From the NCBI GenBank assembly GCA_903813345.2, contig CAIIXF020000006.1:39025936-39089935 (forward strand): 64,000 nt of DNA, written 5' to 3'. Positions 1,302 to 57,403 of the stretch are shown here, piece by piece (position 1 is the first letter of the stretch; every line of letters starts with the position of its first letter). The notes under the pieces are model-generated. The model made no database searches. It was not told where the DNA came from and worked only from the letters and a program-made list of their open reading frames with translations. The translations under genes and the position numbers were made by a program. This stretch comes from Owenia fusiformis. Its lineage: Eukaryota; Annelida; Polychaeta; Sabellida; Oweniidae.

Positions 1302-1347
1302 ATGAAAACCGGTTGGGTCTTCGTTTGCATGACACTTTTGGAGTTTG
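1302..1347 (+). CDS. Gene A exon 1: signal peptide
   Basis: Reads MKTGWVFVCMTLLEF plus the first base of a Gly codon, then donor gtaagt. The start is chosen because the same ATG, at the same distance from the donor, occurs in the two paralogs. Compared with the paralogs, a Glu (E14) interrupts the end of the hydrophobic stretch and a Cys (C9) sits within it, so secretion efficiency may differ. Confidence 0.75.
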
Positions 1348-4300
1348 GTAAGTTGCAACATTATTTCCTATCATATATTGACGCATTTTGGCCTTAAGAA
1401 ATATTTGGAAAATCAAGGAACCGACATTTAAAATACAGTTATGGCTATTATTTTGAGGAAAAATATATTTTGTGAGGGGCATCATTCCCCGCATCATTCA
1501 TGGTATCTACCATGTCTTTTCGTAGCTTTAGCAATATCCAAAGTGATTGAATGTTGCTTAGCTTATCTTCTTTTCAATATGGCTGTTACTTGAACGATAC
1601 TACTTAGGGCACTTCCTGCAGTAGTTTTTGGTTAAGTATGTATTAGCAATATATCTAGTGCAGAGCGGTGGAGATAAGGTTTTGACAAATCGTTTACACG
1701 CAGTAAAACATATTTAATGTGATACCCAAAATAAACGAAAATTACTCCTTTTCTTGCATTGAAAAAAAAATAAAGTAAAAATTAAGAAAATTCATTTTCC
1801 AATAATGACATGATGTGCTCCGCATAACCTCGAATGAATGGGTGATGGTTTGCTCTAAAGCTAAACATTTAAAATTCTTAGACTTATTGAGTGAACTTGC
1901 TCTAAATGGCCTTCGTCGGAGTGAAATGTCAGTTGTGCTTCCTCTGGTGTGTTCGAGCGTTAACACCAGCTGCCTCTAGTCAGATCAACTGACAAAACAA
2001 CCTTTTTTTGGGGTTGTCAAGTTGGCCGAGAGGGCTTGAGCGCTGGTGTGAAAAAATGGATGGTCCCCCAGGGATTATGGTCCCCTTTCTTAACGGCCCT
2101 TACTGGCCCTGATTATGTATAAGATAATGAGGGAAAGAGTTGTATTTAGGTCACCATATAAATTAATGGAGAGTAGGACCATAATTTGATAGGACATCCT
2201 ACCCTTTTACACCGGCATGTTCGAGCTAGGCGATTGGGTGCCGTAACTACGAGGTTGCGAGTTCGAGACACATGTGGTCCTTGTGTTTATTCATTTTAAG
2301 ACATTTATGATAGATAATTGTCAGTCAGATAACTAAATTTCAAAAATGTTCCTTTGATCAAACACAGTGTCAGATAACTTAATTCAAAAATATTGATTCA
2401 TCATCAGAGTTATTTTATATTTGTTTCGGTGCGATTCATTTTGGGACAACCTGTATATATATGCACGAAATTTCTCATAAAATATATCATGGTAAGATGG
2501 CTCTCTATGTTTTATTTTCAGGATTAACATCAAAATATAGACCATGTAAAGCGAGATGCAGATCTCTAGGTCTACGGAAATGTTTCAAGATATGCAGAAT
2601 TGCAACAGTATGTTTATTTTAATCTTTTTGTGAGGTCGCATCTGGAAAATGGGTGAATGCATATTTGTTTTCATACAGGAGTTAACAATGGCGTCATGTT
2701 TTCATGAATTTATTTGCGTTTCAAGATTGATTGTGTATTGAAGTATCCATATATGTTATCACATTGTTCATATAATTACACACAACTGCGACAATAAAAT
2801 AAGGAAGTACCTATACCAGTGAGATCTTGTCAAATAGCCTGAAAATGTCTAAAATTAGTTTCTAGCCGACGTTGGCACATTGTGCAAAATGAGTGTTTAT
2901 TCTGTAGCGATCCTCACTCTGCGTGGTAAGCGCAAAAGGTAGTGGTAGCGTTAAAGGGTTGATGAGTGAGTGGAAGAATCGTCACATTATTACCGGGTCC
3001 GTGTTATGATTGTATATGCTCTCGAGGGTTTTACAGACATGACTGGTTGAATGGCAAAATGGCTGAATATGTCGCACTGCGACATAAAACATACACCTAA
3101 CTGACAAAACAGATGATTTAGTTTAAATATAAATGATAACATAATTATGGGTTTATTTACAATGTGATTACAAAGTGAGTATAGTAATTATGACAATTAC
3201 ACACATAGTGTGGAAATATATATATATGAATAAAAGTTCTGATATTGTGATACCTGAATGATATATGGTGCAGCGTTACTCAATGGCAACGGGTACCCAT
3301 ATTCAAGGATAATGCACAAAGGTGGATCGTTATGCAACTAAGATCCCTGAAATGTGGTTACGATAATATACATAGTATTTCCTATCAAGTACAATACATA
3401 CTTAAGTAAGATTACATAATTACCAAGAAGCTGATATTGCAATTACACATTATTGAGCTCATATTCATAACTTCTACATTGAATACACATATAACATACA
3501 ATACTTTCATCTGGGAGAGTGTGTGACACAACTGGTGACCAAATAAACATACATGGCAATAGGTATTACCATGACTTTGCAACAACCTATGACAATGAGA
3601 ACAACAACAACTGGCACCTTGGAGTGTACGACATGACGCAAAGAACCGAATTACAACCACAGACAAAATATAAGACCGACTAAAAATATCAACGTAACAT
3701 TCCTTATCACAAGCTTGGGTGAAACATACCAAATAATGACTATAACAATAACTTGTACAACATTTGATTCAACATACCAATTAGTGATAACAATGTATAC
3801 ATGACTGCTCATTATGTAACATGCTAGGAAAATTAATGTCATATAACATGTGGGTGCAATCACATGACATGGATATACATGTCACGTAACTAGTGGGCGC
3901 CTGCTATGAAACATGCCGACGCGTGCTACATGACATATGGGTGCGATTACACATCATGTGAATACATGCTATGTAACAAGTGGGTGCATGTTATGTAGTA
4001 AGTGATCAATCATGAACATGAGTAAAACTGTATACCCAAGTTGGTAGTAGTACATCACCAACTTATAATATTCCATGACACAACATAAGGGTGGGTGCAA
4101 CAACTTGTATTCCCTTTGGTAATATTGGGTGCAACAAATTGTATCTCCCTAGGGTGGCTTTGGGGAAAGCCATACATGCATACAGTATATAAATTATAGT
4201 ACGACCTTAACGCAACGATACAATAAAACCGACACTCCAACCATCGATAAACAATAGAACAGTTCAAGTTCAAAACTAGTATCAGGCTAGACCATAAACT

Positions 4301-7300: not shown

Positions 7301-10300
7301 ATATCCAGGCAGGATATTGTATCATTTTTCGCTGTGAAAAACCATGACGTACTACATTAATAATTCCAAATAGCCGTCGATGTATGTGTGCTCAAGGAAC
7401 ATTATCAGAAACTAAAATTACCAAAATTAAAAAGATTTGAGACACTTAACTCCTCGATCTGATTAATAACCCATTCCCAGCAAATCTCAAAGACGGGAAC
7501 GGGAACGGGATAAATAGATTTCTCAAACCCACTTATCGACAGCAATGTATAGGGTGCTGGGATTAACCAGATTCTAAAATCAATTTATCCCAATTTTTTC
7601 GCAATCACACTGGGACAAAGCGATTTTAGAAAATGCTTTATCAAGCGCAACATTGAATGATTTACACCGGTGTGAAAGTATTTCTGGTCCTACCTAAATA
7701 TGGTCCTACGGACCATTATCCCTAGTAAAGATCTAATCTCCTGGGGAATACAGTCCCACCTGCTAGAGTAGGTGGTCCTAATCGGACCAAAATTCCTAGG
7801 ATTATTGGTCCTGGACCTAAATTCCTGGGGAAATTGGTCCTATGGCTTTTTTCAAGGGAATAATGTTCACTTTGGAAACGGGTTATATTATTTAATATCT
7901 ATTGAATAGAAAACGATTTAAGATGTATATCTTGTCAACTATTTTATTCTGTTATGCGTATACATGTCATTGCCACAAGTTGTGTGTTTTTTTTTGTGCG
8001 ATGACCATGAGCTGTGTGATGTTTTTGTGCGATGACCATGAGCTGTGTGGGTTTTTTTGTGCGATGAACAGCATGAAATCTATTAAAAATGTAGCATACA
8101 ACTAGCTAGCATAGTAATTCCCCAAAAAGATTCATTGAGCAGGTTACTTAATCCATAACAAATAATGTGAAAACACACGACCAGAATACAACTTTTGACT
8201 TTGACACTTAAATGAAAGAATTAATAAAAAAATCGAGCAAGAAATGAAAAGGCAAATTTAGCAATTATTTTAGATGTACTGGAATAGGATTCAAACTTTG
8301 TACCTGGCGGAATGAAAGATACACAATGGAAATACTATCATAATAGCAAGTACATACAATAACATATACATAAGCTAACAAGTCCAATGCCTTACCAACT
8401 GAGCTACACTGCAAACGATGCTGACCAACCAAATCGATGTGTCTATAAACTTAATCACCCGCTTAAAGGGACCACCTACTCTTTTACTGGTGTGAAAGAA
8501 ATTATGGTCCTACTCTAGTAAATGGTCCTACCCTCTATATGATATTTTAGGACTATTTTCCCTAGGGATTGTGGTCCAACAACAAGCTTAAATTATGGTC
8601 CGACTAGGAACACCTACCCTAGGAACCACGGTCCTTCGGACCTTAAAATGGTTTACAGAAAGAGATCTATTTACTTTCACGGTTTGGTTACATTTGTGCA
8701 ATCAAAGTAACAGGCACCAGGCCATTACACCTTCTCTACAATGTAATGACAATGTTTAATGTATATAGATCCTTCCGAATAAATTGAGTGCTTACTATAT
8801 TTTATTGATTCTCCCTTGCAAATAAATTGCTCACTACTTGTGATATTTTCTTCATTCTGACAGTCAGTGCTGTGGTATGAATTATTAATCAAATCATAAC
8901 TCAAACAAATAAAATAAATAAACGTTTTAAAGTCGATTATGACCTTGATATTCCCTTTTACAAACATTTGGATGTAGTAAACCATAAACTATTGTAATGA
9001 CCACTGCTTTCTATAGATATAACAATTGTTTTGATATATAGTTCAATTAAAACAACAAATATGTTGGCCTGTAGGGTGATACCATTGCTTTGCCTTGTTG
9101 GAAGAACTGCTCAGTCTCTATAAATGGTTCAAATGCTGCAAATGACCTTCGTGGATGTATCCAACAATGTAGAGTTGGGAAAACTTGTGAAACTGCTTCT
9201 AACAAAAGTAAACCAATAATAGTTACACAATATCTTATCTCTAACATGATCATGGACAGTTTAAGCATGTATTCGCACATGCAATTTTCGGTTAGCAGCT
9301 ACCGGATTGATTGCAATCTGATGTCAAACTCATTCAAATATGAATAAAACCTGCTATGTAGCTCGGTGACTGATTCGCTAGTTCACAAATTGATGGGTTA
9401 ACTTAGATGTACACTTAAAAGGCACCATACATCATAAGTAGTTGTAGTAACTGACAGCTGAACTTGAAATAAATATCCTAAGTGGCAACAGAATGCGGAA
9501 TTAAAGTTTTTACACTCTAATTAAATCAAAGTTGAAAAATCCTTTTAAGCCGGCTTCATCAAAATACTCAAAGACAAAATGCTTCGGGAAGGTCCAGTTT
9601 TCACAAAGGATGGGCACTTTTACATTGTTTTACCATTGGCGGGTGAGATCAGCAGAGTTGACTTGGAAAAAAAGCAGGTAAATATTTTCTAAATAACTTT
9701 ATATCACTTTTACCTTAATGGCTTCCATGAAAATCGAGACACTATTGACTATCTTATGACTGTTTAAAGGTGAAATACAGTTAATCACAAAATATTCTCA
9801 AATGGCTTTCTCTCCACGAAGGAGAAAATCACTCAAAAATCACTCAATAATTACCGTTGAATGTTACTAATTATAAATGTAAAACTTTTGTATTAGAATC
9901 ATGATTACCCCGCCCCCTTTCCAAACTCTAGATAAAATTTCCTATCTTCCTCTACCCCTTTCTTTCAATTTCACTTATTTGATTAATATTTCGTTGCTAG
10001 ATGGTTACTAGGCAAAATAATGGACCAACTTATAAGTTTTTACAAAGGATGATGAAAGATAAAGCTAAATTTAAGATTGCAAAGTGATTTATTTAGACAG
10101 ATAGATATAACGATTACCTGTTAAGAACAGACATCATAAAATTTAAAAACTTTGTAGATGAAACATATCCTGCTAAGCTAGTATTGAAAAAGACTAATGA
10201 ATCTAATATGAGTGCACCTTAGTTTGATCTTCTTACTAACATTGAACTAGACAATAGTATATATTGTAAGTTATATGATAAAAGAAAACAAGGGCGAAAC

Positions 10301-13300
10301 ATAATTTTAAAAAATGACCGAAGCTCTTTAATTTTTTATTTTAATGTTAACATAGTAAACTAAACACTTAGCAGCGAAAAAGGTTAGACAATTCATGATC
10401 AATTTTCATATGAAAATTCTTTTATATGAATCATTTTGTGAATACATATCCTGAAATCTGATTTGCCCAGAACCCGAAAATTTGGAGGAATTGGACTTAA
10501 GAAATTAAATTATTTCAGAGACTTTTGAAAAAAGTTTTTTATTTCTCAAATATGCAAATTTCCTGCCATTTTTCAAATAAAAGTTGACATATTTTAATTA
10601 TTAAATATTCCACCATACAGTGCAAAACACATTATCTTTTAACAGAAATACGACGATTGAATAAAGCATACATTGTTTCATTAATCAAATGTCATCTGTT
10701 TTAAATATGCCAAACAAATCAGGCTGAAAGGAAGAATATATTAAGTTTTAAATATTACTGTAATGTTGGTTTAGGCAAAACACGTTAGGATGAATACTAT
10801 GAATCGGTGTGAGTTATCTATTATTAAAAGATACTTGTGACCTCTATAAGTTAGTTTCAAAGAAATTCACGGTTTTCGAGCAAAAATGCCTTCAAAAACC
10901 GTTCAAAAACGTTTCGCACATCACATTTTGATAAAATTGGGTGAGACTACAATATAAGCCAGTGTTTAAAACTTTATATAGGGGATTCAAGTATTGACAT
11001 TGCATGACAGGTAAATAAAAATTCAAACATAGAAGATTTAACACGTGATCTTATTAGGGGGTTAACTGTTAACATTGCCAAACTTATGGAGCAGAGTGTA
11101 TCCGTATGAGTGGTATACAGGGTGTCCCAGAAGTAATGATAATTATACTTTAAATTTTTTATTTCACAAGGAAACAATGTAAAATTTACACAAATTAAAG
11201 ATCAAGATGTACGTTTCATTTTGCTATATTTCATTCTTTACGATACACAAACATACTCCATGTATGGTTGCCATGGCAACCCATATGCACGTTCTGCGGA
11301 GCAACTTAGTTTTCCATACATTTTTGAAAAACATTTCGTGTTTCCCTGTAATTCACATACCTCAGCAGTATTTCTAATTTATTTCTCAGTTGTAGATTCT
11401 TCTTTAATATGTGAAATATATTTGACTTTGGAATACTTAAATCATTGAATATTCCCCTCACTGACACACGGTTGTCCTGCTGTATCATTTCTCATACAAA
11501 CTGGCCGTGTCTTGTTTCTGGTGTGCCAGACCTTTTCTTATCATAAAGTTTCATTCTGCTTTCAGATCCAAACCATTTGTGCTTTCTATACGCAGTTGAG
11601 TTGGAAAGTTTTCTCTCACCATATGATTGCTTAAACTCCTTTATATCGTCACTGTGTTTACCCCCTGTCTTTTGAAGGAATTTGATTACTGCTCTCTGCA
11701 CTAATTTTTCATCTTGCTCAAAGTAGATGGGATAGTGTACACCTCTCTGGAAATTCCTATGTTGTGTTTCCCCGAGAGCTTTCTTTTGTGAAATCCTATA
11801 TACTGTATATATCTCTTTTGTGAAGCACTATACCATTATACAACAACATCAAATCACCAAAACAATGATTTAACATTTTTTTAAAATATCCAAGGATAAC
11901 TGCTTTCTACACGAGTTTGAACATTAATATAACATAGTGAAAATGCTCCGCAGAACGCACATACAGGTTGCTATGACCACCATAAATAGAGCATTGTTGT
12001 TGTGTTTAGTGATTAATGTGATATTGCAACACGAAGCCTACATCTTGAGCTTTATTTTGTGTGAATTTTATATTGTCTGCTTATAAATAAAAGTTTTAGA
12101 GCATAATTATCGTTACTTCTGGGACATCCTTTAGACCTTCTAATATCTAATAATAAGTCAAAATGTCAACGCTGTACTCGTCTATATGACATAAGTGTTG
12201 TTCCATAGTACACCCTATTTTGCCAAAAAATCAAGGGGAAATTAATTCAGAAAATACATGTAAAAAACCTTTGCATTAAAGGGAACGCATTGATTTAAGA
12301 TTTACTATTTTCACAGGCTAGCACGTTTGTTGCCCCATCAGTAAATGGGTTTGATGGCATACCAGCAGGATTACAATGTGACGCGGAGAACAATATTTGG
12401 GTTGCTGATGCAAGACTTGGCTTACTGAAAGTGATGCAAAATGGCTCTTTTCAACAAGTAAGAAAGAAATAAGAAAGTGTTTAACATAATTCTAATACAG
12501 GGAGATCATTAAGTTCTGGGAATTGGTCTGCCATTTCAAGATTTCTCTACCATTTGAGTTGAAATTTTCAGCAGGTTTACATTGTATAATTCTGAATTGA
12601 CAAGCAATGTTTCATATACATATCACATCTACGATCTATTTTATTGTAATTACAAAAAAAGTAAAGGTGGTCCGCGGGTCAGCAAATTGTGACTAATGTT
12701 AATCTGAGAATTTCCTGCCAAAACATATTCATCTTGCCTAGATGGTTGCTTCAAACTACTTGCATGGCAGAACAGTACTCTTGAAGTCATTTATTCAGGA
12801 GTATTCTTCATTGCTGAGAGGATCATTTCATTTATAATTGTTTCCATTAGCCTGGACGCACATGCCTTGTTGACAAACTTAGTCCATAAAGATGTATTCC
12901 AGTCCTCCTTTGGTATCCCTTGAAGATTTGCTCAAGCCGTTGAAAGCAGTCCCTTATCGGAATTAAACTTATGACCTCTCATATAATGCTTTAGCACCCA
13001 AAATGTAGTGAAGCCTAATGGTGCTTCATCTGGTGAATATTGTCTGGTGAATATTGGGAAGTAATAAGTTGTGTGAACCCTAATTCTTCAAGAGTACTAT
13101 GGGCAGCTTGAGTAATGGGAAGCATAGTCATAATGGAAGATAACTCCCCGCTATTTTGAGTCATGATTTTGACTTTGAGAGTCTGACGAATAATAAGAAA
13201 ATAGAGCAAAGTTCACTCTTATATATCACAATACAGGTGTTACTTTAGAAACTAAAGCTAGAAGTATTTGAAAATATGAAAAATCACAGAAATATGTCCA

Positions 13301-16300: not shown

Positions 16301-19300
16301 GGAACAAAATGTCTATCAATAACCACTTTTTGAAATTAAAAAAAAAAAGTTTCACATATCATACTTTGATAACATTGGGTAAGACTACAATATAAGCCAA
16401 AGTGGTTTACACTTTATATGGGGCCTTTAAAGGTATCATAAAAGTTTACTTATAATCATCGTTACAGCCATACTCAATGTTATAAATAGACACTGATCAT
16501 TACAAACAGCTCCATGGAAGTTAGAATTGAGAAATTGTAATGCAAACTTATTAAAATTGTTATTAATTTGTTTCCCACTTGAGAGTCTCGTTTAAAAAAC
16601 GATAACTTGTTTTGTGACATTGAAGAATGGTAAATGAATTATAGAGACTGTAATATACACCATTCCCACACATTTTTTAAACAGTATAGTGTATTCAAAA
16701 CGTTTCTATATTGTTCTAAGGTAATGTAATATTTTTAGGAAATCAAATTAGTATACATATACTATCATTGCTTTTGTTCAATTAATTAGTAGAAATAATA
16801 TAAAAAGTAACGGAGATTTATTTAGCACAATTAATGAGTGTCCCTTCCCTTATATATCATGGTGTATCTCAGAAAATAAGATAGTGAAGCATGAGATATT
16901 TTGGAGTATAATACTTTCGACTTTGTTGATTACTTTGGAGGATGAGATTAACCGAAACACAACAGTTACTATTTCAAAAGTTCAAACCTCGAAATGGACC
17001 TGAAAATGGACGCCGAAAAATGTGACATTTATAAAACTTGCTAAGGTGGATAATTCATTTAAGGAAGTCATTCACTTACACATGTTTTTAAAATATAATT
17101 GTTTTGTTTGCCTAGCTGCGTAGCAAAGTACTTTTTATCATGTTTTGATATAGTTAGTATATTTCTTTAGATTAATTTCTTTTATTTTTCAACAAATTCA
17201 TAATTTTCTAGCACAAACAAAATAGATTATGATGTTGGTTTAAAGAATTGTTTATAACTATATGCACCTCACTTTGCGCATGAACGCTAATTTTCAAATA
17301 GCACACTTCCATTAACTTTTTTATTTACACTAATTTTAGGTAGCAACTAAAGACAATCAAAATGAAACCATACAAGGATGTAATGACCTTATATTTGACT
17401 ACCATGGTAATCTATGGATTACTGCACCAGTTGGCCCCATTGCCCCAAATAACTTAACAGATTCAAGGAAGGTAATATTTATGGCATTACGTATTCGACT
17501 GATAGTGTCCCCTGCCCTGAGGTGGCATGCAATTACTAATTTAGAATATTCCATGGACCTACTGACATTTTTGGTACAAAACGTGTTGCAATATAACGTA
17601 TCTAGGGAACGAGATGGATATTTCTGTGTATACAGTATCCCTTAGCCTTGCCCAAGTCGGTCTCTTTTACTATCTTGGTTTCTATTATGACCGCCTTGTA
17701 CCAAAGAGAAAGCCACGTGCTTTACCGACTCAATGTTTATGTCGGTAAAATTTGACCAATCAACGACGGCCCTGCAGCGTCAGCTCATTATTATGCACGG
17801 TCAAAAACAAGTACACTTTTTACTTTTCGCCGGGACTTTTCACGAACAAACTTGCATGATTTCATCATGAAAATACAAATATTTTATCAGATAAATATCA
17901 ATCAGAGTTTAGTGGATGTCGGAGCATCGATCGGTAACCGGAGGTGAGAAGATTTCTTAAATAAACGTTGAAACGATCGCTGAATTCAAATGAACATGTA
18001 GGCTGAGATTCAATCACTGATCGACTACATGACCCGATACATTGGACTCGGTCTTGCATTTTCATCGTGAAATCAGTTTTAAATCTATTGCATGATTTAA
18101 TTTATATTAATGACTCTTACATTCCCTATGTACATTTAATTACATAATATATTGTAACTCTAAAGAAACGATCGATCAGATCATCGGCATTGAATTTCAA
18201 ATCGGGAAGATTGCTTTGCTTATGCAGGTCAACCTGATAACGTTTTTGATTGGTCAATCAGCCTGAAGTCACACGTCGTGTCCAGACTGTCCACGCGTAT
18301 ATCTGTTAATCAATAAGGTTTCGCGATACCCCTGATAGCGTAGGTATTATGGAAATCTCGAAACCGTTGAATAACTCTGCATAATATCAGCGCAGGTGTA
18401 TTGGATTGTACAAGGCGGTAATAATTCAAGATCAGATAAGTAAAAAAATACCGACTTTGGCAAGGCTAAGTATCCCTCTTTCACCGAGGTTCAGGTCATC
18501 CAGCTGTGTTCATTCCTGTCCAACTCCGCAATTTTTATTTTTTGAGAAACTTTATTACAATCTTAATACGAAATCTTTCACTACTTTGAGAAAGTTGTTT
18601 AAAGTCACCTAGTTCTCAACTGGCTAGACTGCTATGATTCATTCTTATATTTCACAGTACAGTTGTTGTAATGCGTGTTGGTCTTTCATATGTTGGCATA
18701 TGTGCTCATATATTTTTGTCTGTCCTGCCACCTGTCCATCCATTAGCTAGATCCTTGAAACTAGAAAGGCACTTTTGTGTTCATTCCTGTCCAACTCCGC
18801 AATTTTTATTTTTTTGAGAAACTTTATTACAATCTTAATACGAAATCTTTCACTACTTTGAGAAAGTTGTTTAAAGTCACCTAGTTCTCAACTGGCTAGA
18901 CTGCTATGATTCATTCTTATATTTCACAGTACAGTTGTTGTAATGCGTGTTGGTCTTTCATATGTTGGCATATGTGCTCATATATTATTGTCTGTCCTGC
19001 CACCTGTCCATCCAATAGCTAGATCCTTGAAACTAGAAAGGCACTTTTTGGGTATGGGATCTTGAATGTAAGATAATCAGTGAGCTGCGAGCCTTGGTGC
19101 GCATAGTTGATATGTTAATATTGAAAACCTAGCATGCCATTGTGATAATTGTTTCATTTATTTCTATTTTCATTAACATCATTACCAGGATCCATTTGGA
19201 AGTGTGTACTGCTATAATATGACAACTAGCGAGATTATTAAAGTTGCCACTGGAATCCTATTTCCCAATGGTATAGCTGTGCAACATGATAGCAATGGGA

Positions 19301-25579: not shown

Positions 25580-25589
25580 TATTAATTGT

Positions 25590-36160: not shown

Positions 36161-36161
36161 T

Positions 36162-40900: not shown

Positions 40901-43900
40901 TTAACTTTCCGTTGAGTCAATCAATTAAATCCAAATTTTAACACAATGTTAATCATACCATAAGGGATATTATACAATCAAATAAACATGAAAAACTTAA
41001 TTTGCAATTTATTTTTCAGTTGAAATTAGAACCATTGGCTGTGGAAATTAATCCATTAACTCAAACAAACAGATTATTTATCAGTGTGAACAAAACTCAA
41101 ATCATGGAAATTGAATAATTAGGGATTAAAGTTTGACTTATTATATTGCTCTGGAATGTCAATACATGTATGTGAATGGTGAAAAACTACATGATTTTGA
41201 CAGAATTGTTGGCCACGGGGAGGGGGTCCTCAGCTACGGGTCTGTATAAAATGCGTAATGTGTTTATTGAATATTGAGCAGTTCCCTGTCATGACTGTTT
41301 TTCCGGTTGGCAAAGTGAATACAGGTGGTTGTTTGTACCTTTGTAAGAGGGGATCAATTTAAATGTTGTTTGCTATTAACTAAGAGAAACAATGGATTAA
41401 AAATGTGAGGAAAACAAATTAATTAAAAATTCAAAAATTAACTTTACAATGAATTAATTGATTGAATCAAAAATTGAACACAATGTTAATCATAACATGA
41501 GGGACATTATACAATCAAATATGTATGTAAAAACCTATTTTGCAAATTATTTTTGTGGAATTAAGAGCCATCAGCTGTAGAGATTAATCCATTAACCCTA
41601 ACAAACAGATTAATTATCAGTATGAATGAAACTCATTTCATAGGAATTGAATAATTAGGGATTAACGGCTCGAAAATAACCGCGTATAATAGGTTTTTGA
41701 TTGCAAATGCCAACTTATTATTTGCTCCTGACAGGAATATTATTCTATATTATTTGGCATTATATGTTGTTCCCTTTAAATAATACACGAATAATATTAT
41801 TAAATCAAAAATAATTCTTAAAAATACGTATTATATTTTTTTCCGTTATAATAAAAGAAATAACTGCCTATTATACAGGAAAAAATATTCTCTACGATTC
41901 TCTCTTAATGCAACTTATTTAGCAGTATATTAAACATTTTATTCTATATTATTTTTACTTTTTTACCAAGTGATAGATCTCAAGAGACATTGGCATTCCT
42001 TTGCTAACAAGGTGTCAATTTGATTGATCTCGATGCTTGGCCACCCAACCCGCCCCGATGCTACATGTAATTTGTTTGATTACGATACATGGAGCCATCT
42101 CGAGGAAATGGTACAATCAAAAGCATCCAATAAACAGCTTTGATGTGCTGAAACAGAATCCTAAAGTGCTGAAATGAATTGCAACAGAAATCTCTCAATA
42201 AGGTTATTGATAGATTGCGCTACCACTTGAAGCTTATTGTTGATGCATAGGGGAGGGGTGGGGGTATATTGAGCAATTGTGAAAATTGTTTAAATAAATA
42301 AAGTGTAAAATGTTATTAAACAACACTGAAATTCATAAACAATAAATTTAGTCACACAATGATGAAAATATCAGTATCCAAGCATGTATTCACCTAACAA
42401 AAGAATGATATTCTATAAATAAAAAATTAACATAATTCCGCAGATTTACTATTTTCTCCCTTAAATCTGGAGACCTTAAATAGCTACCCGGCCTCCCAAA
42501 TAAGTATAATAAAACTTTTCTATTGATTTCATGACATAGTGTTATATACCACATTGTTTGAAATTGTATAACCTTTAAAATGGTATGTAAGTCAATGTAC
42601 CATATCGAATGTAACTATTTTTATCCTGATTTGAAGTTGGGTATTGTTTTTTTGGCCCAACCTGTATATATTTCCCATTTACAGAATATCTTACATTCCA
42701 AAATATCCTCAAGGATAACAAAAGAAATTATGAAAAGCGACACAATGTCAACATTTTTTTCAAATTGTTGAACCTACATGTATTTACACAAAATATGATT
42801 TTTATTGCAAGAAAATATTATTCAACAAGGGGTCCAAGGCTTATTCAGAAGTAGAATGGTATTGAAAGTCTAGTTAAGAAGATATCAAAATTATGCTGAA
42901 AACAATGGATAGCATAAAGTTTCCATTTGCAAAAATAACATGGGATATATGGTTTTTAACTTCCCAACACTGCAAATTTCACTACCCATCACCTTTTCAG
43001 AAGTTGTTAATTTAGTGTAGAAGAAACTTTGGGTATTTTTGAATTGAAAAAACAAGATCATCCTTTTATATAATAATAATATATAAAAGAAGCCTAATTA
43101 TTTTAAAAATTGACAAGATGGGGTCCTTATCCATCAGTTTCAGAGAGTTGCAATGATCTCTGTATTATCACGGGATATTACTTGTTTTTTGATACCAACA
43201 ACTATTATTTATGACCAAAAACTACTCATAGTGAAATATATTACTGTCCAAAATTGCTTGTCATACTATACCTGGCCATCTCAAAATACCCCTTTACCGT
43301 AACAGAGTGATTTTATGCTTGTATTAATGGACTTCATTTTGGGACACCTTGTGTTTATATACCCGAACGGTTTCATATAAAATATATCATGGCAAGGTCG
43401 CTCTCTTTGTTTTATTTTCAGGATTAGCATCAAAATATGGACCATGTAAAGCGAAATGTAGAGCTCTAGGTCTACGGAAATGTTCAAGGATATGCAGAAT
43501 TGCAACAGTAATGTTAATATTAAATCTTTTTGTGAGGTCGTATTTAGAAAATAGATGAACGTTAAGAACCTGAATTGTTTGTTGGCATTCTGGATAAATA
43601 TAAAGGCGGCCATTTTGTATTTTCCGTCCTGAAATCTTGTCTGTCGAGGCTTGTGAATAGATTCCGAGCCAACTTTTCAGGGATTCATCTGAAATGTCCA
43701 GGAGTGTTTCTACGTATAACATTTTAAAGACTGATTAGATTTTAGGTATTCTGGGTAAATGTTAAGGTGGTCATTTTGAATTTTTCATCCTAAAATCGTG
43801 ACTATCGAGGCTTGTAGGTTTCCAGCCAAACCATTTTAGGGATTCATCTTGGATATTCAGGGATGTTTCTACATATGACAGTTTACAACTGATTAGGTTT

Positions 43901-46900
43901 GGGGCATTCTGGGTAAATGTTAAAGCTGTCATTTCCCTCCCTTAAATCCTGTCTGTCGAGGCCTGCCTACAGGTTTCCAGGTTTTATGGATTCATATTAA
44001 ACTTAGGGCTGTTTTTGGGTATGAACGTTTTGAATTGATTACTCTTTGGACAGTCTGGGTAAATGTTAAAGCGGCCATTTTGGATTTTCCGTCTCGAAAA
44101 CTGTATTCTATTCAAGAGTGCGATTCTGTTCACTCTGTGTCGTGTTTTATTTGGCACCGTACAACAACTTTTAAAATAGTATAATCAAAGAAGACTAAAA
44201 TTGGAAAGAATATGTAAAAAGCTACACCTAAAATATAAAAAAAAAACTGTAGGGTACTTCTGAAACAAAAACAATAATTTCAAGTAGCTGTCGATGTTTG
44301 TGGCTTGAGGAACAGCATCAGACACTGAAACGAAACGCGCAGATATTTTGGGTTAAAAAGGTTTGGAGACTTAAACAATTAAAAGTATTTCAAGTCGATT
44401 ACGATCTTGAAATTCAATTTTACAAACATTTTACATAGAGTAAACCATAAACTGTTGTAATGACCACAGTTGTTTTTATTGATGTTGTGATTGTTATACA
44501 TAGTTAATTAAAATAATTAAAAGTATGTTTGCCTGCAGTGTGATACCATTGCTTTGTCGTGTTGGAAAACCTGCTCAGACTCTATAAATGGTCCAAATGC
44601 TGCAAATGATCTGCGTGAATGTCTTCAACAGTGTAGAGTTGGGAATACCTGCGAAACTGCTTCTAACAAAAGTAATTCAAAAAATTACACAATATCTAAC
44701 CTCTAATATGATCATGGACAGTTAATTAAGTTTTTGAAAGTTTGACCCTTTCTCCTACTAGTAGTGAATATAGGACATATTCAGGTGAATTAATGAAAGG
44801 GTTATCCAAAACGAAATTTGAAGAGTAGACGTACAGAAAGCAAACGACCTGCAGTTGAACCTAACCGTCTAAAATTTTACGTTAAAGCAGAAGAACTAAA
44901 GTTTTTACTCTCCTGTTATTCATGGTTGAAAAATCCTTTTAGATTGCTTCATCAAAATATTAAAAGAAAATGGCCATCGGGAAGGTCCAGTTTTCACAAA
45001 GGATGGGCACTTTTACATTGTTTTGCCTTTTGACGGTGAGATCCGTAGAGTTGACTTGAAACTTAAGAAGGTATATATTTTCTAAATACCTTTATATCAA
45101 GTTTAACTGTTCATTTTAGTGATAACAAATAAAGGGTGGTCCAAAAAGCGAACCCTCGCAAAAATATATATCTCATTTTTGACCAGCTTTAATGGGCTAG
45201 TATCCTTACATATTTTAGATGAAGTTCTAAAGATACTGTTGGTACTATAGAGGTCAACCTCTTACAGAAGTTAGATGACATCTCCAGACATGCCTTATTT
45301 ATGGATTGTGTGCACCATCCGTGCTACACGGTTCTGGATAACTGCCGCAACGCAAATGATGAAGTCGTTCGCTGCTCTATCCAACTTATCTGGACATACG
45401 TATACTCGTATCTAAAGTTTTTTGCAATTAACAATTTCAACATTTGCTCTACAGTTCTGAATAACTGCTGTAACAAGAAGTTGTCCATCACTCAAAAAAC
45501 TTTATATACAATTTTATCCTCAATATAAAGATAAATCCGAGATTCAACATGTCCATGGGTTGCTTCAAGTAATGAACTACTTCAACATTCGTGTTGTGGT
45601 AGTCATCCAGATCCGCGAAGCATGGATTGAACAAATCATCCAAAATCAGACATGTCTGTTGATGCCATGTAATTTCTGCTCGAATAGACCGACTGACATC
45701 TATGGTACCCACCAAACGTTCGAGACCTTCCACCTTTAGAAAATATAACAATATTATCCCATTAATGCAGGTAATAATAGTATGTATAGTAGTGGATATA
45801 GGACATATTCAGGTGAATTAATGAAAGGGTTACCCAAAACAAAATTTGAAGAGTAGACGTACAGAAAGCAAACCACCTCAGTTGAACCTAACCGTCTAAA
45901 ATTTTACGTTAAAGCAGAAGAACTAAAGTTTTTACTCTCTCGTTATTCATGGTTGAAAAATGTCCAACTTATCTGGACATACGTGTAGTCGACGTAGTCG
46001 TATCTAAAGTTTTTTGCAATTAACAATTTCAACATTCGCTCTACAGTTCTGAATAACTGCTGTAACAGTTGTGTCAAAGTACGATTTACATTTTCCCCGA
46101 AAATCAGTAAGAAAATACATGTTTAAAGGCTTTGAATTAGAGGGAACTAATTGATTCTATTTTCTCAGTCTAGCACGTTCGTTGCCCCATCAGTAAATGG
46201 GTTTAATGGGATGCCAGCGGGATTACAATGTGACCTCGAAAACAATATCTGGGTTGCTGATGCAAGACTTGGTTTATTGAAGGTGGACCAAGATGGGTCC
46301 TTTACACAGGTAAGACATAATCGATGTAACCTCATATTTCGATGACAGCCTGTATCCTACTGCTACATTGTTCATCACATTTGATAATAATTCCGGTGGA
46401 ATGTTTTGGATTTCTCTTAGGACGTTGCCCTTAAGTTGTTGTAGGTCCTTTTGATTGGAATGAGCATTAAAACACTCCTTCAAATAGCCACAGAGAAGAT
46501 GTTTGAGGATGACGATGGCAGAACATACACAGAACAGGATCTTAAGAGGTTCTGGACAAATCATTTGATTCTGGACTTGTCATATTTTTTTTTCAACGAA
46601 ATCACATCCAAGGGTTGAATTTTTATTAGCTATTTAGAGAGTGAGTCCTGCCTAGTATTAATTTCAATAAAAAAAGTTAAAATAGAACCCTATTTGAGAG
46701 TCAATCTAATACTTACATTACATTGTTAAATTAAGGCAAATCCTGAAATATTTTTAAAGTGCGTTTTTTAATGAAATATTATCCAGCAAGTATTTAAATG
46801 AAACGGTCTTATTTAAATACAAATCATAACATGATATTTTTCATGAAACATTTTTCAATGAAATTCAATTGAAGGGTCAAGATAAAACGAGTTAATTTAG

Positions 46901-52900: not shown

Positions 52901-55900
52901 TGACCCTTCAATTGAATTTCATTGAAAAATGTTTCATGAAAAATGTCATGTTATGATTTGTATTTAAATAAGACCGTTTCATTTAAATACTTGCTGGATA
53001 ATATTTCATTAAAAAACGCACTTTAAAAATATTTCAGGATTTGCCTTAATTTATCAATGTAATGTAAGTATTAGATTGACTCTCAAATAGGGTTCTATTT
53101 TAACTTTTTTATTGAAATTAATACTAGGCAGGACTCACTCTCTAAATAGCTAATAAAAATTCAACCCTTGGATGTGATTTTTCGTTGAAAAAAAATATGA
53201 CAAGTCCAGAATCAAATGATTTGTCCAGAACCTCTTAAGATCCTGTTACAGATAATCGGGTCAATTATCGGCAAATGATTCAGGAGTTACCTTCCAGAGT
53301 TAGGCAGGCTAGCCTGGAGAGACTAAATGATATCCAAATGAAAACACAGAAGTCTCAAATTGATACACACAGCAAAGGCTATACTAAAATCCCAACCAAT
53401 GCAGTTTCTTTAACCTCTGACCTCTCTGTATAAGGGGGGCTATAAGACATTGTGAGGGCCTCCCCATTCACCACATTTGGCGGCCCATACTTTTTTCTCT
53501 GAGGCTATTTGAAGGACCATTTTTATTCTAAACCCAAGCATGGAAACCTAGAACAACTTGAGGCCAGCATCCGAACAGAAATCAAAACATTCCACCAGAA
53601 ATACCATATGTGATGAACAATGTAGTAGTAAGGATGCTGACTGTCATCGAAATATGAGGTTACATTGAAAATGTGGTGGGAAAGGTAGCGGGTTAAAGTA
53701 TCAAAAAGGCAAAACTGAATTAAAAACTGTGTATAGGGGAAAAAACCTTCATCTTTTATCTACAAGACCATGCAAAAAATGTCTGAAAATATTGATTAGT
53801 TTGTCTATGCTGTTGATATACTTTTTGTTACACTTTTGAGACACCCTATATACATGGGTTGTAACATGGAGAGCTAAGGCATATATAACATTCGCGAGAG
53901 AAATTGTGACATCCAAAATTGGAATTGCATTAAATATTTTAAATGGAAATAGTTATTCTATTTTATGACACGTGAATATGTATTGATCAATCAGAATCAA
54001 TGTTACATATTGAGTATTTAATAAAATCAATTATTGTTCAACATTATTTAGAAATACACTTTTTGTGGTTTCAGTTTTACGATGGTGTCTAAACCGTTGG
54101 CGTCATTTTTTCAGACAGTCTTTTATTGTTTCACCTTGATCATGGACGCCAACTTTCAAATAAAATAACTTTTCATGATCAGTTATAGCAAAAATCGTAA
54201 AATAACACACAGAAAAATGGCCGCTCATTAGCCAAATTGTCATAAAAAGTGTAATAAATGATTCTATGTAGGCACATACAAAAGATCAACAAAATCGCTC
54301 CATTTTCCAAATGGCTGTCTTCTACCAGCCAAAGTGCATAAGACAGTGTACCATGTTTATGAGTATATGAATACAATCGCTCCACTACATGAGTCGTAGT
54401 AAAAAACGTAAAATAAGGCACCGTACCTACGTGCCAAAGTGCCATTTGCCAGTGTGTCATGCTTATGAGTCCAGATATCAAATATGAACAAAACGCTCTA
54501 CTTCTTTTCCAGTTACAGCAAAATTCGTAAAATATCGTGCAACGCCCGCCATTTTCAAGATGACCACCATTTTAGAAATATGTTTAGATTTTAACTTAAT
54601 CAATATCCTATATTTTATTTTATTGCATTAAATTACAGTTCAATGTATTGTACCTAAAATACAGAAAACTTAAAACTAAAATGGCGGTCATTTTAAAACC
54701 GATAGCCATTTTTAAAATCAGCTTTCGGGTAGTACTTGTATCCCCATAGGGCATATACATATACAGTATAAACACTATTGGTGTAATTTTATTTGAGTTA
54801 TTGTCCGGACGGACGGACGGCAGGGGTAAGTACGAACTGACGGACGGAGTCGTTCTCTACATTCCCCTACAATTATGACGTTGGCCTTACGGTTATTGGA
54901 TAAATGAGTCTTTTCATATTTACTTAAGAAAAAGTTTATTAAAAGTAAGCATACACACTACGACAATTGTATTATTTACACTAATTTTAGGTAGCAACTA
55001 AAGACAATCAGAATGAAACCATACAAGGATGTAATGATCTTATATTTGACTACCATGGTAATTTATGGATCACTGCATCATTTGGCCCCATTGCATCCAA
55101 AAGCTTTACAGACTCGAGGAAGGTAATATTTATGACATTAGTACAGTCAATCTGGAATCATGTTGTTGGGGGATATAACTTATCTAGGGAGTGGGATGGA
55201 TATTAATGTGCATAGGGTGTCCAAAAAAACAGGACCGTAAGAAAGTTGAATAACTCGGTCAATTGTGCATATTTTGCCTTGGAATTTAAGAATTATTTAG
55301 TTCATTCAATGAGAATTTTGCTCTAAAAGTTTGATGATAATCTATTTATTGTGTTAAAAACTACAGTCCTTTACAAAACATGCCCAAAGTGGGCACTTCT
55401 CCTCTCTATGCACAAACGAATCCTGCGAACAAAGTTGTTAATGACCCTAACCTATACACATTAATGTGGATGGTAAATATTGGGGTAGTTATTGGGCTCT
55501 TAAGATTGTTAGGGGCCTGTCAGTACACAGTGGCTTTGAGAAATCCTCAAAGATAAAAATTTGGGGGATTTAGATCAGGCAAATGAGCTGCCCATATGGT
55601 TTGCATTCTGCAACTGATGACCTAACCACCAACGCATTGCCTAAACCATTTCAGCATATCATTTGCAGTGTTGGGGTGGTATTGGTGTGTTGAAACCACT
55701 GCTTAATTATCTCCTTAGATGTCCCTTCTGGTGCTTAGTGACCTCCAAAACTTGGCGAGAACTTACTGGTCCTTGTTCATGCTGATAGCAAGTCCCAAGT
55801 CACCTTCGACCCAAAAGGGACTGATGATTCCATGTTTCCTCATTGCCACCCAGGGAGTGCATTGTTCAGAATGCAATGGATGCTGTAACACTTCATCAGG

Positions 55901-57403
55901 AGGATGTAAGCCCCAGTAGCAATTGTTGTTAGAAAAACTTGTCCATTCAGAAAGACATGTGTGTAGGAGGATCATCAACAGCTTTGTTCGCCGGATTGAA
56001 TTGTGCATAGAGATGAGATTTGCACATTTGGGGCATGTTTTGTAAGGAGCTGTAGTTTTTGACTCAATTGATAGATTATTATCAAACTTTCACAACAAAA
56101 TTCACATTGAATGAACTAAATAATTCTGAAATTTCAAGTCAAAATATGCAAAATTGACCGAGTTATTCAACATCTTACGGTCCTGTTTTTTGGACACCCT
56201 ATCGCCGAGGTTCAGGACATACATAAGGGTTGTGTACTGGGAGGTTTTGGATATGGGGTTTATCCAGCGGGAGATATGCATATCTACCTGAGGGACCGAA
56301 GGTAGATGTGCATATCTTACGAGGGATGAACCCCCTATCCAAACCAACCGTACATAAGTGCTTTATCCTATACCAAGTAGAGTTTTCAGGGGCATATGGC
56401 CATTTCAATAGTACAAGGTCTAAAAATAAACAAATCATTCATATGCAAAGTCATTTTATTACATTTCCACCACTTACCGGAAGCGGGAAGATATGCACCG
56501 AAGCGGGAGATATGGTGGTTCTGGATATGGAAACCTCAAAATCAGGATACGGGATATATCTTACCAACTTATCTCACTAAAACTCTACTTGGCATAGGAT
56601 AAAGCTGTTTCTATTCTGGCCCCACTCCAATTTCTTTGATCTCTCACTGTTCCATTTGTTCATTCAAAATCTAAACAGAAAATCTTTTAAAATGGTTACA
56701 AATATTGTTTTATCTATTATCATTTTCATTCACATAATTTCAAGGATCCATTTGGGAGTGTGTACTGCTATAATATGACAACTAATGAAATCATTAAAGT
56801 TGCCACTGGATTCCTATATCCCAATGGTATAGCTGTGCAACATGATAGCAATGGGACTCCGAAGAAACTCATTTTCGGGTCGTCGTACAATATAACTGCC
56901 CCCTTATGGAGCTTTGATATAGTTAGCCCTTGTCAAATTGAAAACAAACAAGTTTGGGGAAATCTACCTGGTAAGTAATTATATTTATGAGAAAAATATA
57001 TTTGCTGAAAAGGTCTGATCCGATGTTGAAATCAATGTTCATCTCAAAACATTGTGGTGCAATTTTCTCCTCTAAACCTTACATACGTACAGCTAGTTTT
57101 AAAAGTGTAGTTTACCATTTTAATGTTCATTGATTTCTACTTATAGCCAATGGTAATATAAATGGTATAGATTTTGATGAAAAGGGGAATCTTATAGTCA
57201 CACTCATAGACAATGGTTCTAGTTTGCTGTTCGTCTTCGGCCCTAATGGAGGTACTCCGACTTGTCAATTAAAGTTGCCAACTACGCGTGCGACCAATAT
57301 ACAGTTTAGGCCTGACTCAAATGAGCTCTACATTACTGGAGATGCATTATTGAAACTACGATGGAAATACAATGGGATGAAGCAATATTGCGAGATCGCT
57401 TAA
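37943..57403 (+). CDS. Gene C: secreted DFPase-like propeller protein with Cys-rich N-terminus (8 exons), Asp229 position changed to Asn
   Basis: Exons: 37943-37988, 43422-43507, 44539-44671, 44943-45070, 46169-46309, 54991-55122, 56745-56970, 57147-57403. Joined length is 1149 nt, giving 382 aa plus TAA; all introns are GT-AG. The signal peptide MKTLGFLVAMALLGF is the most canonical of the three. The Cys-rich region has 11 cysteines, two more than gene A (C45 and C90). The propeller keeps E102, N193 and N249, but the residue aligned with DFPase Asp229 is Asn (NINGIDFD, N303). The His274 position is Gln, and two residues (LI) are inserted after NLIVT in exon 8. The open frame with a substituted catalytic ligand suggests altered, non-catalytic or binding function; this is inference. 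Introns 1 and 5 are expanded by large inverted-repeat elements. Confidence 0.83.
38147..42664. mobile_element. 4.5 kb DNA transposon with long terminal inverted repeats
   Basis: Ends CAGGGTGGGCCAAAAAAAA and, on the other strand, CAGGTTGGGCCAAAAAAACA, each next to TA. The inverted repeats extend for about 330 bp (to about 38480 and from about 42310). The interior is very AT-rich and has four related blocks with (c)aatggagtaaaaatgtga and ttaactttcc near 39290-39360, 39840-39890, 40865-40915 and 41390-41450. No transposase frame is seen. It fills most of intron 1 of gene C. Confidence 0.75.
39230..41700 (+). repeat. Internal degenerate tandem blocks of the 4.5 kb element
   Basis: Four direct blocks share aatggagtaaaaatgtgagg, ccaaattttaacac(a/c)atg and taatccatt(a/c)ac in the same order, at intervals of about 0.5-1.0 kb. 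No coding potential. Confidence 0.65.
43422..43507 (+). CDS. Gene C exon 2: first CxxxC hairpin unit
   Basis: Between ttattttcag and gtaatg. C-x3-C-x7-C-x3-C is kept in YGPCKAKCRALGLRKCSRIC. Confidence 0.82.
43580..44110 (+). repeat. Degenerate tandem repeat, about 155-bp unit
   Basis: Four units containing attctgggtaaatgttaa(a/g)g, ccattttg, ctgtcgaggc(t/c)tg and gggattcat lie in intron 2 of gene C. Confidence 0.7.
44539..44671 (+). CDS. Gene C exon 3: second CxxxC hairpin unit with an extra Cys
   Basis: Starts TGT directly after tgcctgcag, giving CDTIALSCWKTC, so C45 replaces the Gly of genes A and B. The remaining pattern is C-x3-C-x15-C-x3-C-x5-C. Donor gtaatt. Confidence 0.82.
44757..44935 (+). 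repeat. Segment duplicated across exon 4 of gene C, copy 1
   Basis: Intron 3 sequence from ggacatattcaggtgaatta up to tcatggttgaaaaat, stopping just before the exon 4 acceptor. A near-identical copy lies in intron 4 at 45783-45962. Confidence 0.85.
44943..45070 (+). CDS. Gene C exon 4: start of the propeller, extra Cys
   Basis: The acceptor is tccttttag. The split codon gives Asn and then Cys (NCFIKILKENGHREGP), so C90 replaces Gly. E102 is kept. Donor gtatat. Confidence 0.82.
45132..45760. mobile_element. Possible inverted-repeat element remnant in intron 4 of gene C
   Basis: Starts with agggtggtccaaaaagcg, a mariner/Tc1-type end. The segment around 45350-45420 and the complement of about 45545-45610 are imperfectly alike (gaagtcgttc / gaagtagttc; tctggacatacg / catggacatg). 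The right end is not identified. Confidence 0.3.
45783..46065 (+). repeat. Segment duplicated across exon 4 of gene C, copy 2, joined to a second duplicated piece
   Basis: 45783-45962 copies intron 3. 45963-46065 then copies 45376-45475 (tccaacttatctggacatac through ctgaataactgctgtaac). The chimeric junction points to a local copy-and-join event. Confidence 0.8.
46169..46309 (+). CDS. Gene C exon 5: propeller blade
   Basis: 47 codons between tttctcag and gtaaga. PSVNGFNGMPAGLQCD and VADARLGLLKV are conserved; Asp to Asn (FNG) and Ile to Met changes sit next to the conserved PAG. Confidence 0.88.
46320..46564 (-). pseudogene. Transposase C-terminal fragment (IS630/Tc1-mariner type), left side
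   Basis: LLCGYLKECFNAHSNQKDLQ and REIQNIPPELLSNVMNN resemble the FFLWGYLK...I..IPPEMLRRVM end of this transposase group. Truncated at the arm boundary. Confidence 0.65.
47529..47605 (-). other. tRNA-like sequence in the left arm
   Basis: On the - strand, ttggcctcatggttagcgtg (A-box-like) and ttgatcgagacccg (B-box-like) have tRNA-like spacing, but acceptor stem pairing is not convincing. A tRNA-derived fragment rather than a proven gene. Confidence 0.4.
48712..49508. mobile_element. Nested inverted-repeat element
   Basis: agagaattttcgttataag at 48712-48730 is matched by its complement ending at 49508. The arms continue with cttatacgtatacttata. About 0.8 kb, no coding capacity seen. Confidence 0.6.
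51246..51850. repeat. Imperfect inverted repeat
   Basis: atgttcctgacacgttcggg (about 51278-51297) against cccaaacgtgtcaggaacac (about 51779-51798), with the outer pair tcaatcaacatcatt / aatgatcttgattgg. Probably an old fold-back inserted in the spacer. Confidence 0.6.
52180..52255 (+). other. tRNA-like sequence in the right arm
   Basis: Inverted counterpart of the left-arm copy: ttggcctaatggttagcgtg followed by ttgatcgagacccg. Near-identity of the two copies follows from the identity of the arms. Confidence 0.4.
53400..53667 (+). pseudogene. Transposase C-terminal fragment (IS630/Tc1-mariner type), right side
   Basis: In shifting frames reads GPPHSPHLAA, then FFL-stop-GYLKDHF and a piece ending SSKYEV, matching the PPRSPDLTP...FFLWGYLK region; the Trp codon of the motif is TGA. 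An inverted, diverged partner of 46320-46564. Confidence 0.65.
53668..54990. other. Intron 5 of gene C, distal part
   Basis: A mariner-like end (gagacaccctatatacatgg) lies near 53842 without a found partner. About 54170-54720 contains loose repeats of caaaaatcgtaaaata and ccattttcaaaatgg words. A (GGAC)n run at about 54807-54822. No exon seen. Confidence 0.4.
54991..55122 (+). CDS. Gene C exon 6: propeller blade with QGCND
   Basis: 44 codons between aattttag and gtaata. IQGCNDLIFDYHGNLWITA keeps N193. The following loop reads SFGPIASKSFTDSRK, so the gene A sequon NLT is absent. Confidence 0.88.
55215..56199 (-). mobile_element. Tc1/mariner-like element in intron 6 of gene C
   Basis: Ends GGGTGTCCAAAAAAACAGGAC and the complement of GGGTGTCCAAAAAACAGGAC, each next to TA; inverted repeats of about 180 bp. 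The - strand interior carries a peptide with GIISPFWVEG (about 55763-56008) resembling the mid-region of Tc1-type transposases (G..G..FFEG). 985 bp, degenerate. Confidence 0.75.
56252..56345. repeat. Imperfect palindrome
   Basis: atatggggtttatcc, gagatatgcatatctacc / ggtagatgtgcatatct and gaaccccctatcc form an imperfect stem. A similar word set (tatatggggttcag, tctgcccgagggcc, cccgagggtagata) occurs at about 30890-30970. Confidence 0.5.
56360..56605. mobile_element. MITE, about 246 bp
   Basis: Starts gctttatcctataccaagta and ends with the complement of gctttatcctatgccaagta. It lies in intron 6 of gene C, just before exon 7. Confidence 0.7.
56745..56970 (+). CDS. Gene C exon 7: propeller blades
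   Basis: 226 nt between tttcaag and gtaagt. LYPNGIAVQHDSNGTP keeps N249, with Tyr at the DFPase Phe173 position. VSPCQIENKQVWG has Gly to Ser. Confidence 0.88.
57147..57403 (+). CDS. Gene C exon 8: last blades, Asp229 position is Asn
   Basis: 257 nt, six longer than in gene A. NINGIDFDEKGNLIVT is followed by an inserted LI and then DNGSSLLFVF. The end is NGMKQYCEIA and TAA; the Cys matches squid DFPase where genes A and B have Trp. Confidence 0.87.

What the first reader, a model, noticed from the sequence alone, without database searches (positions are those of the whole stretch)
1302..57403. Tandem triplet of secreted DFPase-like propeller genes with an added Cys-rich domain
Seen: three collinear eight-exon genes with identical exon phases, each with signal peptide, a Cys-rich N-terminal module and a propeller whose metal-ligand motifs align with squid DFPase. 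Known: the squid enzyme as described is a single-domain protein of 314 residues without such a module. The combination of secretion signal, small disulfide module and phosphotriesterase-like propeller may be an undescribed architecture of a secreted enzyme or binding protein.
Basis: partly seen in the sequence, partly recalled or inferred. Interest (0 to 1): 0.8.

Follow-up and report, generated by a model that had tools for sequence, protein, structure and literature searches.

The report
Secreted DFPase propellers with shuffled Cys-module
An animal genome, probably a worm's, carries a family of secreted relatives of a squid calcium enzyme, most of them led by a small cysteine-rich domain that the same genome also joins to two other kinds of secreted protein and that matched no named domain family searched.

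Summary
The window holds three collinear 8-exon genes (A 1302-19835, B 22578-35285, C 37943-57403) of one plan: signal peptide | Cys-rich exons 2-3 | squid-DFPase-like propeller (E 2e-85). B is broken (in-frame TGA, 7-nt deletion). C has lost the catalytic Asp229. The genome has 19 such loci; module exon 3 precedes the propeller at 18. The locus without it, C1, groups with squid DFPase and can start inside the propeller exon, without a signal peptide. Catalytic-calcium ligands are mostly kept (E21 18/19, N120 18/18, N175 18/18, D229 16/18); the pocket is changed. The module is under purifying selection, bounded by phase-1 introns, without Pfam or PDB match. It also ends a multicopper oxidase inside a sister cluster, and module exons precede TSP1-like repeats at five loci. 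So the architecture is real, but is one use of a shuffled extracellular module. Best reading: secreted calcium-dependent propeller hydrolases of new specificity, held in place by a cationic disulfide module. The host is more likely annelid than mollusc. Activity, expression and distribution in other animals are untested.

The parts
1302..1347 (+). gene A exon 1, signal peptide MKTGWVFVCMTLLEF, ends phase 1
2522..2607 (+). gene A exon 2, first half of Cys module (C-x3-C-x7-C-x3-C), phase 1 to 0
9075..9207 (+). gene A exon 3, second half of Cys module (C-x3-C ... C-x3-C-x5-C), phase 0 to 1
9550..9677 (+). gene A exon 4, propeller start, ligand equivalent to Glu21
12317..12457 (+). gene A exon 5, propeller
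17340..17471 (+). gene A exon 6, propeller, equivalent of Asn120
19189..19414 (+). gene A exon 7, propeller, equivalent of Asn175
19585..19835 (+). gene A exon 8, propeller, equivalents of Asp229 and Asp232, stop codon
22578..22623 (+). gene B exon 1, signal peptide MNALVVFVAMTLLGF
22914..22999 (+). gene B exon 2 (a partial second copy of this exon lies just upstream, 22855-22892)
23296..23428 (+). gene B exon 3
23629..23756 (+). gene B exon 4, broken by in-frame TGA at 23715-23717
27369..27509 (+). gene B exon 5
28704..28834 (+). gene B exon 6, 131 nt, 7-nt deletion against Z2, frame lost
34508..34733 (+). gene B exon 7
35035..35285 (+). gene B exon 8
37943..37988 (+). gene C exon 1, signal peptide MKTLGFLVAMALLGF
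43422..43507 (+). gene C exon 2
44539..44671 (+). gene C exon 3, begins with an extra Cys
44943..45070 (+). gene C exon 4, extra Cys as second residue
46169..46309 (+). gene C exon 5
54991..55122 (+). gene C exon 6
56745..56970 (+). gene C exon 7
57147..57403 (+). gene C exon 8; Asp229 equivalent is Asn (57161-57163); 6-nt insertion against A; stop codon

Best explanation
The genes encode secreted, probably N-glycosylated six-bladed-propeller proteins related to a DFPase that, in the C1 copy and in squid, lacks leader and module. Shown by sequence: in front of exon 4 of the propeller stand module exon 3 at 18 of 19 loci, module exon 2 at 16 and a leader exon at 11, with phase-1 borders; the family then multiplied in tandem and across contigs. 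Shown: 16 of the 17 loci readable at all four places keep the four ligands of the catalytic calcium, including Asp229, while many pocket residues are changed. Inferred: intact copies such as A are extracellular calcium-dependent hydrolases (esterase, lactonase or phosphotriesterase chemistry) with a new substrate. Inferred: the strongly basic exon-2 half and the twin-CX3C pairs form a disulfide-locked module that docks or oligomerises the enzyme at an acidic extracellular surface, which would fit its reuse on a multicopper oxidase and on TSP1-like proteins. Gene C is probably a catalytically dead or altered paralogue; gene B is a pseudogene.
For: Squid DFPase match E 2.2e-85; SGL PF08450 E 1.6e-26. 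Module exon 3 at 18 of 19 loci, exon 2 at 16 of 19, one of them (K2) incomplete. Hydrophobic exon 1 with a phase-1 GT donor at 11 of 19. C1: ATG inside exon 4, no signal peptide, no module match better than chance in about 12.3 kb upstream. Tree separates squid+C1 from the 16 module-bearing propellers used, 95/88. E21 18/19, N120 18/18, N175 18/18, D229 16/18. Median dN/dS 0.41 for the module (32 pairs), 0.27 for the propeller (59 pairs). Propeller sequons 6 in A against 2.3 in shuffles; 1 in C1, none in the aligned part of squid. Exon 2 net charge +4 to +9 in the 16 loci that have it. Module on a multicopper oxidase and before TSP1-like repeats; profile match Prob 99.4, E 1.3e-21.
Against: No transcript evidence and no biochemical test. 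Pocket positions 146, 148 and 287 differ from squid in A, so DFPase activity itself is not predicted. His274, a ligand of the second calcium (recalled), is kept in 9 of 18. Signal peptides were judged by hydrophobicity only, and none was found at 8 of 19 loci (some because the stretch was not fetched). The exon-boundary script accepted only AG and GT at the expected phase, so it is not an independent test of phase outside the window genes, which I also read by eye. C1 keeps an AG at the exon-4 acceptor place, so a spliced upstream form is not excluded. AlphaFold of exon 3 alone gave only pLDDT 66.6. C4 and C9 show little or no sequon excess. The fifth Cys of exon 3 is not conserved in all copies. 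The anchoring role is inference.
Confidence: 0.62

Rival explanations
1. The secreted copies are non-catalytic binding or structural proteins that keep calcium for stability.
For: Pocket residues changed and the H287 segment deleted in A and C; D229 lost in C and M2; many paralogues.
Against: The four catalytic-calcium ligands are kept in 16 of the 17 loci readable at all four places (C is the exception; B counted by residue although broken; E and M2 not readable at all four). Keeping the nucleophile Asp229 is not needed for a mere scaffold.
Confidence: 0.3
2. Exons 1-3 make a separate small secreted Cys-rich peptide, and exons 4-8 a separate intracellular DFPase-like protein.
For: Large introns (up to about 8.7 kb in C); C1 can start its propeller within exon 4; no RNA evidence.
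Against: Exons 2, 3 and 4 recur in that order at 16 loci on four contigs; exon 3 of A, B and C runs open to a phase-1 donor and exon 4 starts at phase 1; seven of nine module-bearing propellers tested have about twice the expected sequons.
Confidence: 0.06
3. The module was present ancestrally in all these propellers and was lost in C1 and in squid DFPase.
For: C1 keeps an AG acceptor-like site at the same place and phase (L002:2798-2799).
Against: Squid DFPase and C1 both lack it and group together; one gain is as short as one loss, and the tree root is unknown.
Confidence: 0.25

Closest known systems
Squid (Loligo vulgaris) DFPase, PDB 1E1A/2IAS
   Same: Propeller aligned end to end, 49% identity for A and 58% for C1; the four catalytic-calcium ligands.
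   Different: Squid enzyme is a single-domain chain of 314 residues in 1e1a without module; the window proteins have signal peptide, module, shortened blade-1 loop, changed pocket, deleted H287 segment, gained sequons.
SMP30/gluconolactonase/regucalcin (PF08450), paraoxonase, Drp35
   Same: PF08450 match E 1.6e-26; same four-ligand metal site (PMC3551927, passages read). PON is also extracellular (recalled).
   Different: Lower similarity than to DFPase (next PDB family, gluconolactonase, E 1.5e-9); no such Cys module in those families (recalled).
Twin-CX3C helical hairpins (small Tims; vicilin-derived hairpinins)
   Same: C-x3-C ... C-x3-C spacing; two helices in the exon-3 model, residues 8-11 and 21-33.
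   Different: No significant sequence match: TIM8 E 0.05 and 0.13, vicilin-like E 0.5; secreted here, mitochondrial there. Likeness only.

Membership tests
DFPase / SGL six-bladed propellers (PF08450) | profile match over the propeller | tested here: met
   PF08450 93.8 bits against cut-off 26.3 for A; 1e1a E 2.2e-85
DFPase / SGL six-bladed propellers (PF08450) | four catalytic-metal ligands Glu21, Asn120, Asn175, Asp229 | tested here: met
   met in gene A; in gene C Asp229 is Asn, so not met there; gene B has the residues but is broken
DFPase / SGL six-bladed propellers (PF08450) | six-bladed fold | not tested
   spliced protein not sent to the fold tool, whose rule asks for letter-for-letter translation of the DNA; inferred from 49% identity to squid DFPase
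squid-type DFPase (orthologue) | single-domain, no signal peptide, no extra domain | tested here: not met
   18 of 19 loci have module exon 3; only C1 fits
squid-type DFPase (orthologue) | phosphotriesterase pocket (R146, M148, W244, H287) | tested here: not met
   146 and 148 replaced and 287 deleted in A and C; 244 is Phe in A, as in the crystal variant used, and Asn in C. Wild-type W244 and the role of these residues are recalled; a His287 contact is in a passage of PMC5979579
Twin-CX3C / alpha-hairpinin domains | sequence homology to a known member | tested here: not met
   no Pfam hit for five module sequences, best PDB hit E 0.05
Class 1-1 shuffled extracellular module | phase-1 introns on both borders and occurrence in unrelated secreted proteins | tested here: met
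   phases; partners. In the multicopper oxidase the module ends the protein, so only its upstream border is testable

The most novel reading that the evidence does not exclude
The two-exon twin-CX3C unit is an undescribed mobile extracellular domain that addresses enzymes to one extracellular structure, for example tube, cuticle or mucus. It may have spread within a gene cluster between a multicopper oxidase and a DFPase propeller, turning a cytosolic phosphotriesterase-fold enzyme into an expanded family of secreted calcium hydrolases.
Probability: 0.35. Interest if true: 0.68.

Novelty: new variant of a known kind. Interest (0 to 1): 0.52.

Why it matters
Squid DFPase has been studied for decades as a nerve-agent hydrolase without a known natural role (recalled). 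A family of secreted paralogues with the catalytic calcium site kept and the pocket remodelled gives natural substrates and partners to look for. The module is an unannotated domain found on secreted proteins of three kinds in one genome, so naming it would help annotate them and allow a test of exon shuffling in this lineage.

Tried and rejected
Gigasin-2 as a possible DFPase-like shell protein: rejected, the passages describe EGF domains (PMC3374290 and PMC3361287). Littorina oviduct propeller: fish-egg-lectin type, not related (passages of PMC8614816). Biomphalaria resistance paper: only a gene name in a table (passage of PMC11699755). Known Pfam or PDB identity for the module: none. Mollusc origin: molluscan haemocyanin PF14830 gave nothing, but its control rang in none of 14 genomes either; an APGWamide-like query gave no convincing match (12 matches, best E 8e-4 at 26% identity); an annelid haemoglobin-linker model matched three places, all over cut-off, one with a stop inside, and rang in none of the 14 controls. 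The 498.3 Mb size with large contigs seen among C1-C12 resembles Owenia fusiformis (505.8 Mb, 12 scaffolds; passage of PMC9977687), which is a guess, not an identification. PMC6409789 on ShKT domains was seen only as a listing.

Not done: RNA-seq, searches of animal proteomes, folding of the spliced protein, Foldseek, a dedicated signal-peptide predictor.
Full report
WHAT IS THERE. The window lies at C6:39025936-39089935 of a 498 Mb genome. Exon mapping gives three plus-strand genes of eight exons. In A and C the seven introns have phases 1,0,1,0,0,0,1 with GT-AG joins; B has the same joins, but its exon 6 no longer holds the frame. C-x3-C-x5-C), and exons 4-8 the propeller. Protein A residues 91-379 match squid DFPase at E 2.2e-85 and Pfam SGL at 1.6e-26; five module sequences scanned alone match no Pfam family.

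Gene B is disrupted twice: an in-frame TGA in exon 4 (23715-23717) and an exon 6 of 131 nt where the closest paralogue Z2 has 138, a 7-nt deletion. Gene C has Asn at the place of Asp229; A and C have Gln for His274. Gene C also has one extra Cys at the start of exon 3 and one as second residue of exon 4.

THE FAMILY. Whole-genome searches with the full protein A (E up to 1; 108 of 125 candidates scored), with the C1 protein (E up to 0.001; 78 matches) and with exon 7 (18 matches) all fall in 19 loci: seven in the window's cluster (Z1, Z2, A, B, C forward; D, E reverse), five at C6:27.17-27.26 Mb (K1-K5), and singles at C6:34.88-34.90 (M1), C6:35.19 (M2), C12:31.23, C4:9.01, C7:14.99, C9:26.28 and C1:51.33. 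The tool calls such counts lower bounds. I fetched stretches from the 16 outside the window. Exon 3 of the module is found at 18 of 19 and exon 2 at 16 of 19; exon 2 is not found at C9 and C1, and for M1 it would lie outside what I fetched, with a weak match just upstream (E 0.23). A leader exon is found at 11 of 19; a further leader-like frame lies upstream of K2. Several copies look damaged or incomplete besides B: K2 lacks an intact exon 2, E has three exon-3 copies and two exon-6 copies but no exons 7-8, M2 has a 500-N gap and no exons 5-6, C4 and C9 have doubtful exon-3 ends. Outside the window genes the boundary script accepted only AG and GT at the expected phase, so equal phase there is compatible rather than independently shown; the small shifts needed support it.

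THE MODULE-LESS COPY. The C1 gene can begin at an ATG inside exon 4 (MATKTEMNFFAADFVKIL...), which gives no signal peptide. In about 12.3 kb upstream no module match is better than chance (best e2-like piece E 0.04 with other Cys spacing). It has the squid-like loop EVEVDGKPAGQI and His at 274 and 287. It still has an AG at the same place and phase as the exon-4 acceptor of the others, so an upstream spliced form is not excluded. In an ML tree of 17 propellers and squid (E and M2 left out; B with its stop sign dropped) squid+C1 are split from the 16 module-bearing copies with 95/88 support, C9 branching next (98/97 for the other 15). The root is midpoint only, and squid is a long branch.

IS THE MODULE REAL CODING SEQUENCE? 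Of 15 loci compared, with equal-length exons only, dS 0.05-1.5, and pairs with B or K2 dropped, the median dN/dS is 0.41 (32 pairs; range 0.18-0.60) for the module and 0.27 (59 pairs; 0.14-0.73) for the propeller. Pairs share branches, so they are not independent. In 12 joined modules four Cys of each half, Tyr6, Pro8 and Trp38 are invariant; the fifth Cys of exon 3 is not shared by all. Unequal dS between parts of the same gene pair (A-Z1: module 0.02, propeller 0.12; B-Z2: module 0.36, propeller 0.12) suggests conversion or exchange among copies.

CATALYTIC SITE. The four ligands of the metal in DFPase correspond to Glu18, Asn103, Asn154, Asp204 of SMP30 (PMC3551927, passages), and Asp229 is held to be the nucleophile or water activator (PMC5979579, PMC3737025, passages). 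Here Glu21 is kept in 18 of 19, Asn120 in 18 of 18, Asn175 in 18 of 18, Asp229 in 16 of 18 (lost in C and M2); Asp232 in 17 of 18; His274 in 9 of 18. Residues at 144, 146, 148, 195, 244, 248 and 287 vary. I read this as conserved metal chemistry with a changed substrate, not as conserved DFPase activity.

SECRETION. Besides the leader exon, propellers of seven module-bearing copies (A, C, Z1, K3, K4, C12, C7) have 5-6 N-glycosylation sequons against 2.2-2.9 expected from shuffles; C9 has 3 (2.1 expected), C4 1 (1.8), C1 1 (1.4), and squid none in the aligned part (10 of 19 loci tested). No dedicated signal-peptide predictor was available.

THE MODULE ELSEWHERE. Searching with exon 3 and exon 2 found module-like exons outside the family. 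At C6:27.243 Mb, inside the sister cluster, an exon with the C-terminal Cu-oxidase_2 domain (E 2.3e-16) ends in a phase-1 GT donor and is followed by an exon 2 (phase 1 to 0) and an exon 3 that ends in a stop. At C12:22.54, 23.69, 21.79, 6.48 Mb and on contig C62, module exons precede TSP1-like exons. One such TSP1-like exon was given to Pfam and scores 21.4 bits against PF00090's cut-off of 21.6, so just under. Exon 3 was not found at 6.48 Mb. C62 may be another copy or allele of the 22.54 Mb locus. That these exons belong to one transcript is inferred from phase and order. Single searches are weak (for the 22.54 Mb and C62 loci, exon 3 E 0.039 and 0.0028, exon 2 E 2.3e-5 and 6.4e-4; for the oxidase, exon 2 E 0.0025), but the paired order, the phases and a profile comparison of 12 family modules with 4 outside ones (Prob 99.4, E 1.3e-21 for one comparison) make homology very likely.

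HOW IT MAY WORK. The exon-2 half carries net charge +4 to +9 in the 16 loci that have it. The exon-3 model, folded alone, shows two helices, at residues 8-11 and 21-33, but at pLDDT 66.6. I infer a disulfide-locked, cationic helical module that docks or clusters the protein on an acidic extracellular surface, with the propeller as a calcium-dependent hydrolase. Sharing it with a multicopper oxidase and TSP1-like proteins would fit proteins acting at one extracellular site. This is inference.

ORGANISM. Not named by the tools. An annelid haemoglobin-linker model matches three places over its cut-off, best E 5e-7; molluscan haemocyanin was not found, though that control is uninformative. Size and contig numbers recall Owenia fusiformis, unproven.

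LITERATURE. Nine searches in open-licence PMC papers; none of the titles and abstracts listed concerned a secreted DFPase with such a module, but several hit lists were cut (for example 25 of 5,856, 5 of 12,252). Subscription papers and protein databases were not searchable, so automatic database entries of this architecture may exist.

Noticed in passing
L038:1-3301 (C6:27240500-27243800): Multicopper oxidase with the same Cys module at its C-terminus, lying within the sister cluster of DFPase-like genes.
   Followed up: partly
L035, L036, L037, L031-L034: TSP1-like repeat loci with module exons, some with more than one module exon, and an extra Cys-rich domain (CPxxxDPRYGGNPxTxCC...); the one copy scanned has no Pfam match.
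   Followed up: partly
L015 (C6:39150500-39152000) and L013: Three tandem copies of module exon 3 in copy E, and two copies of exon 6 nearby; possible alternative exons or decay.
   Followed up: no
window 36122-36705: Tandem array, 53-nt unit, about 9 copies, between genes B and C.
   Followed up: no
window 18505-19048: 272-nt near-perfect duplication in intron 6 of gene A (98% matches).
   Followed up: no
window 11492-11827 (-): Open frame that looks like the N-terminal part of a mariner-type transposase (recalled likeness, not searched; frame).
   Followed up: no
genes A/Z1 and B/Z2: Uneven synonymous divergence along gene pairs, suggesting gene conversion or module exchange.
   Followed up: partly
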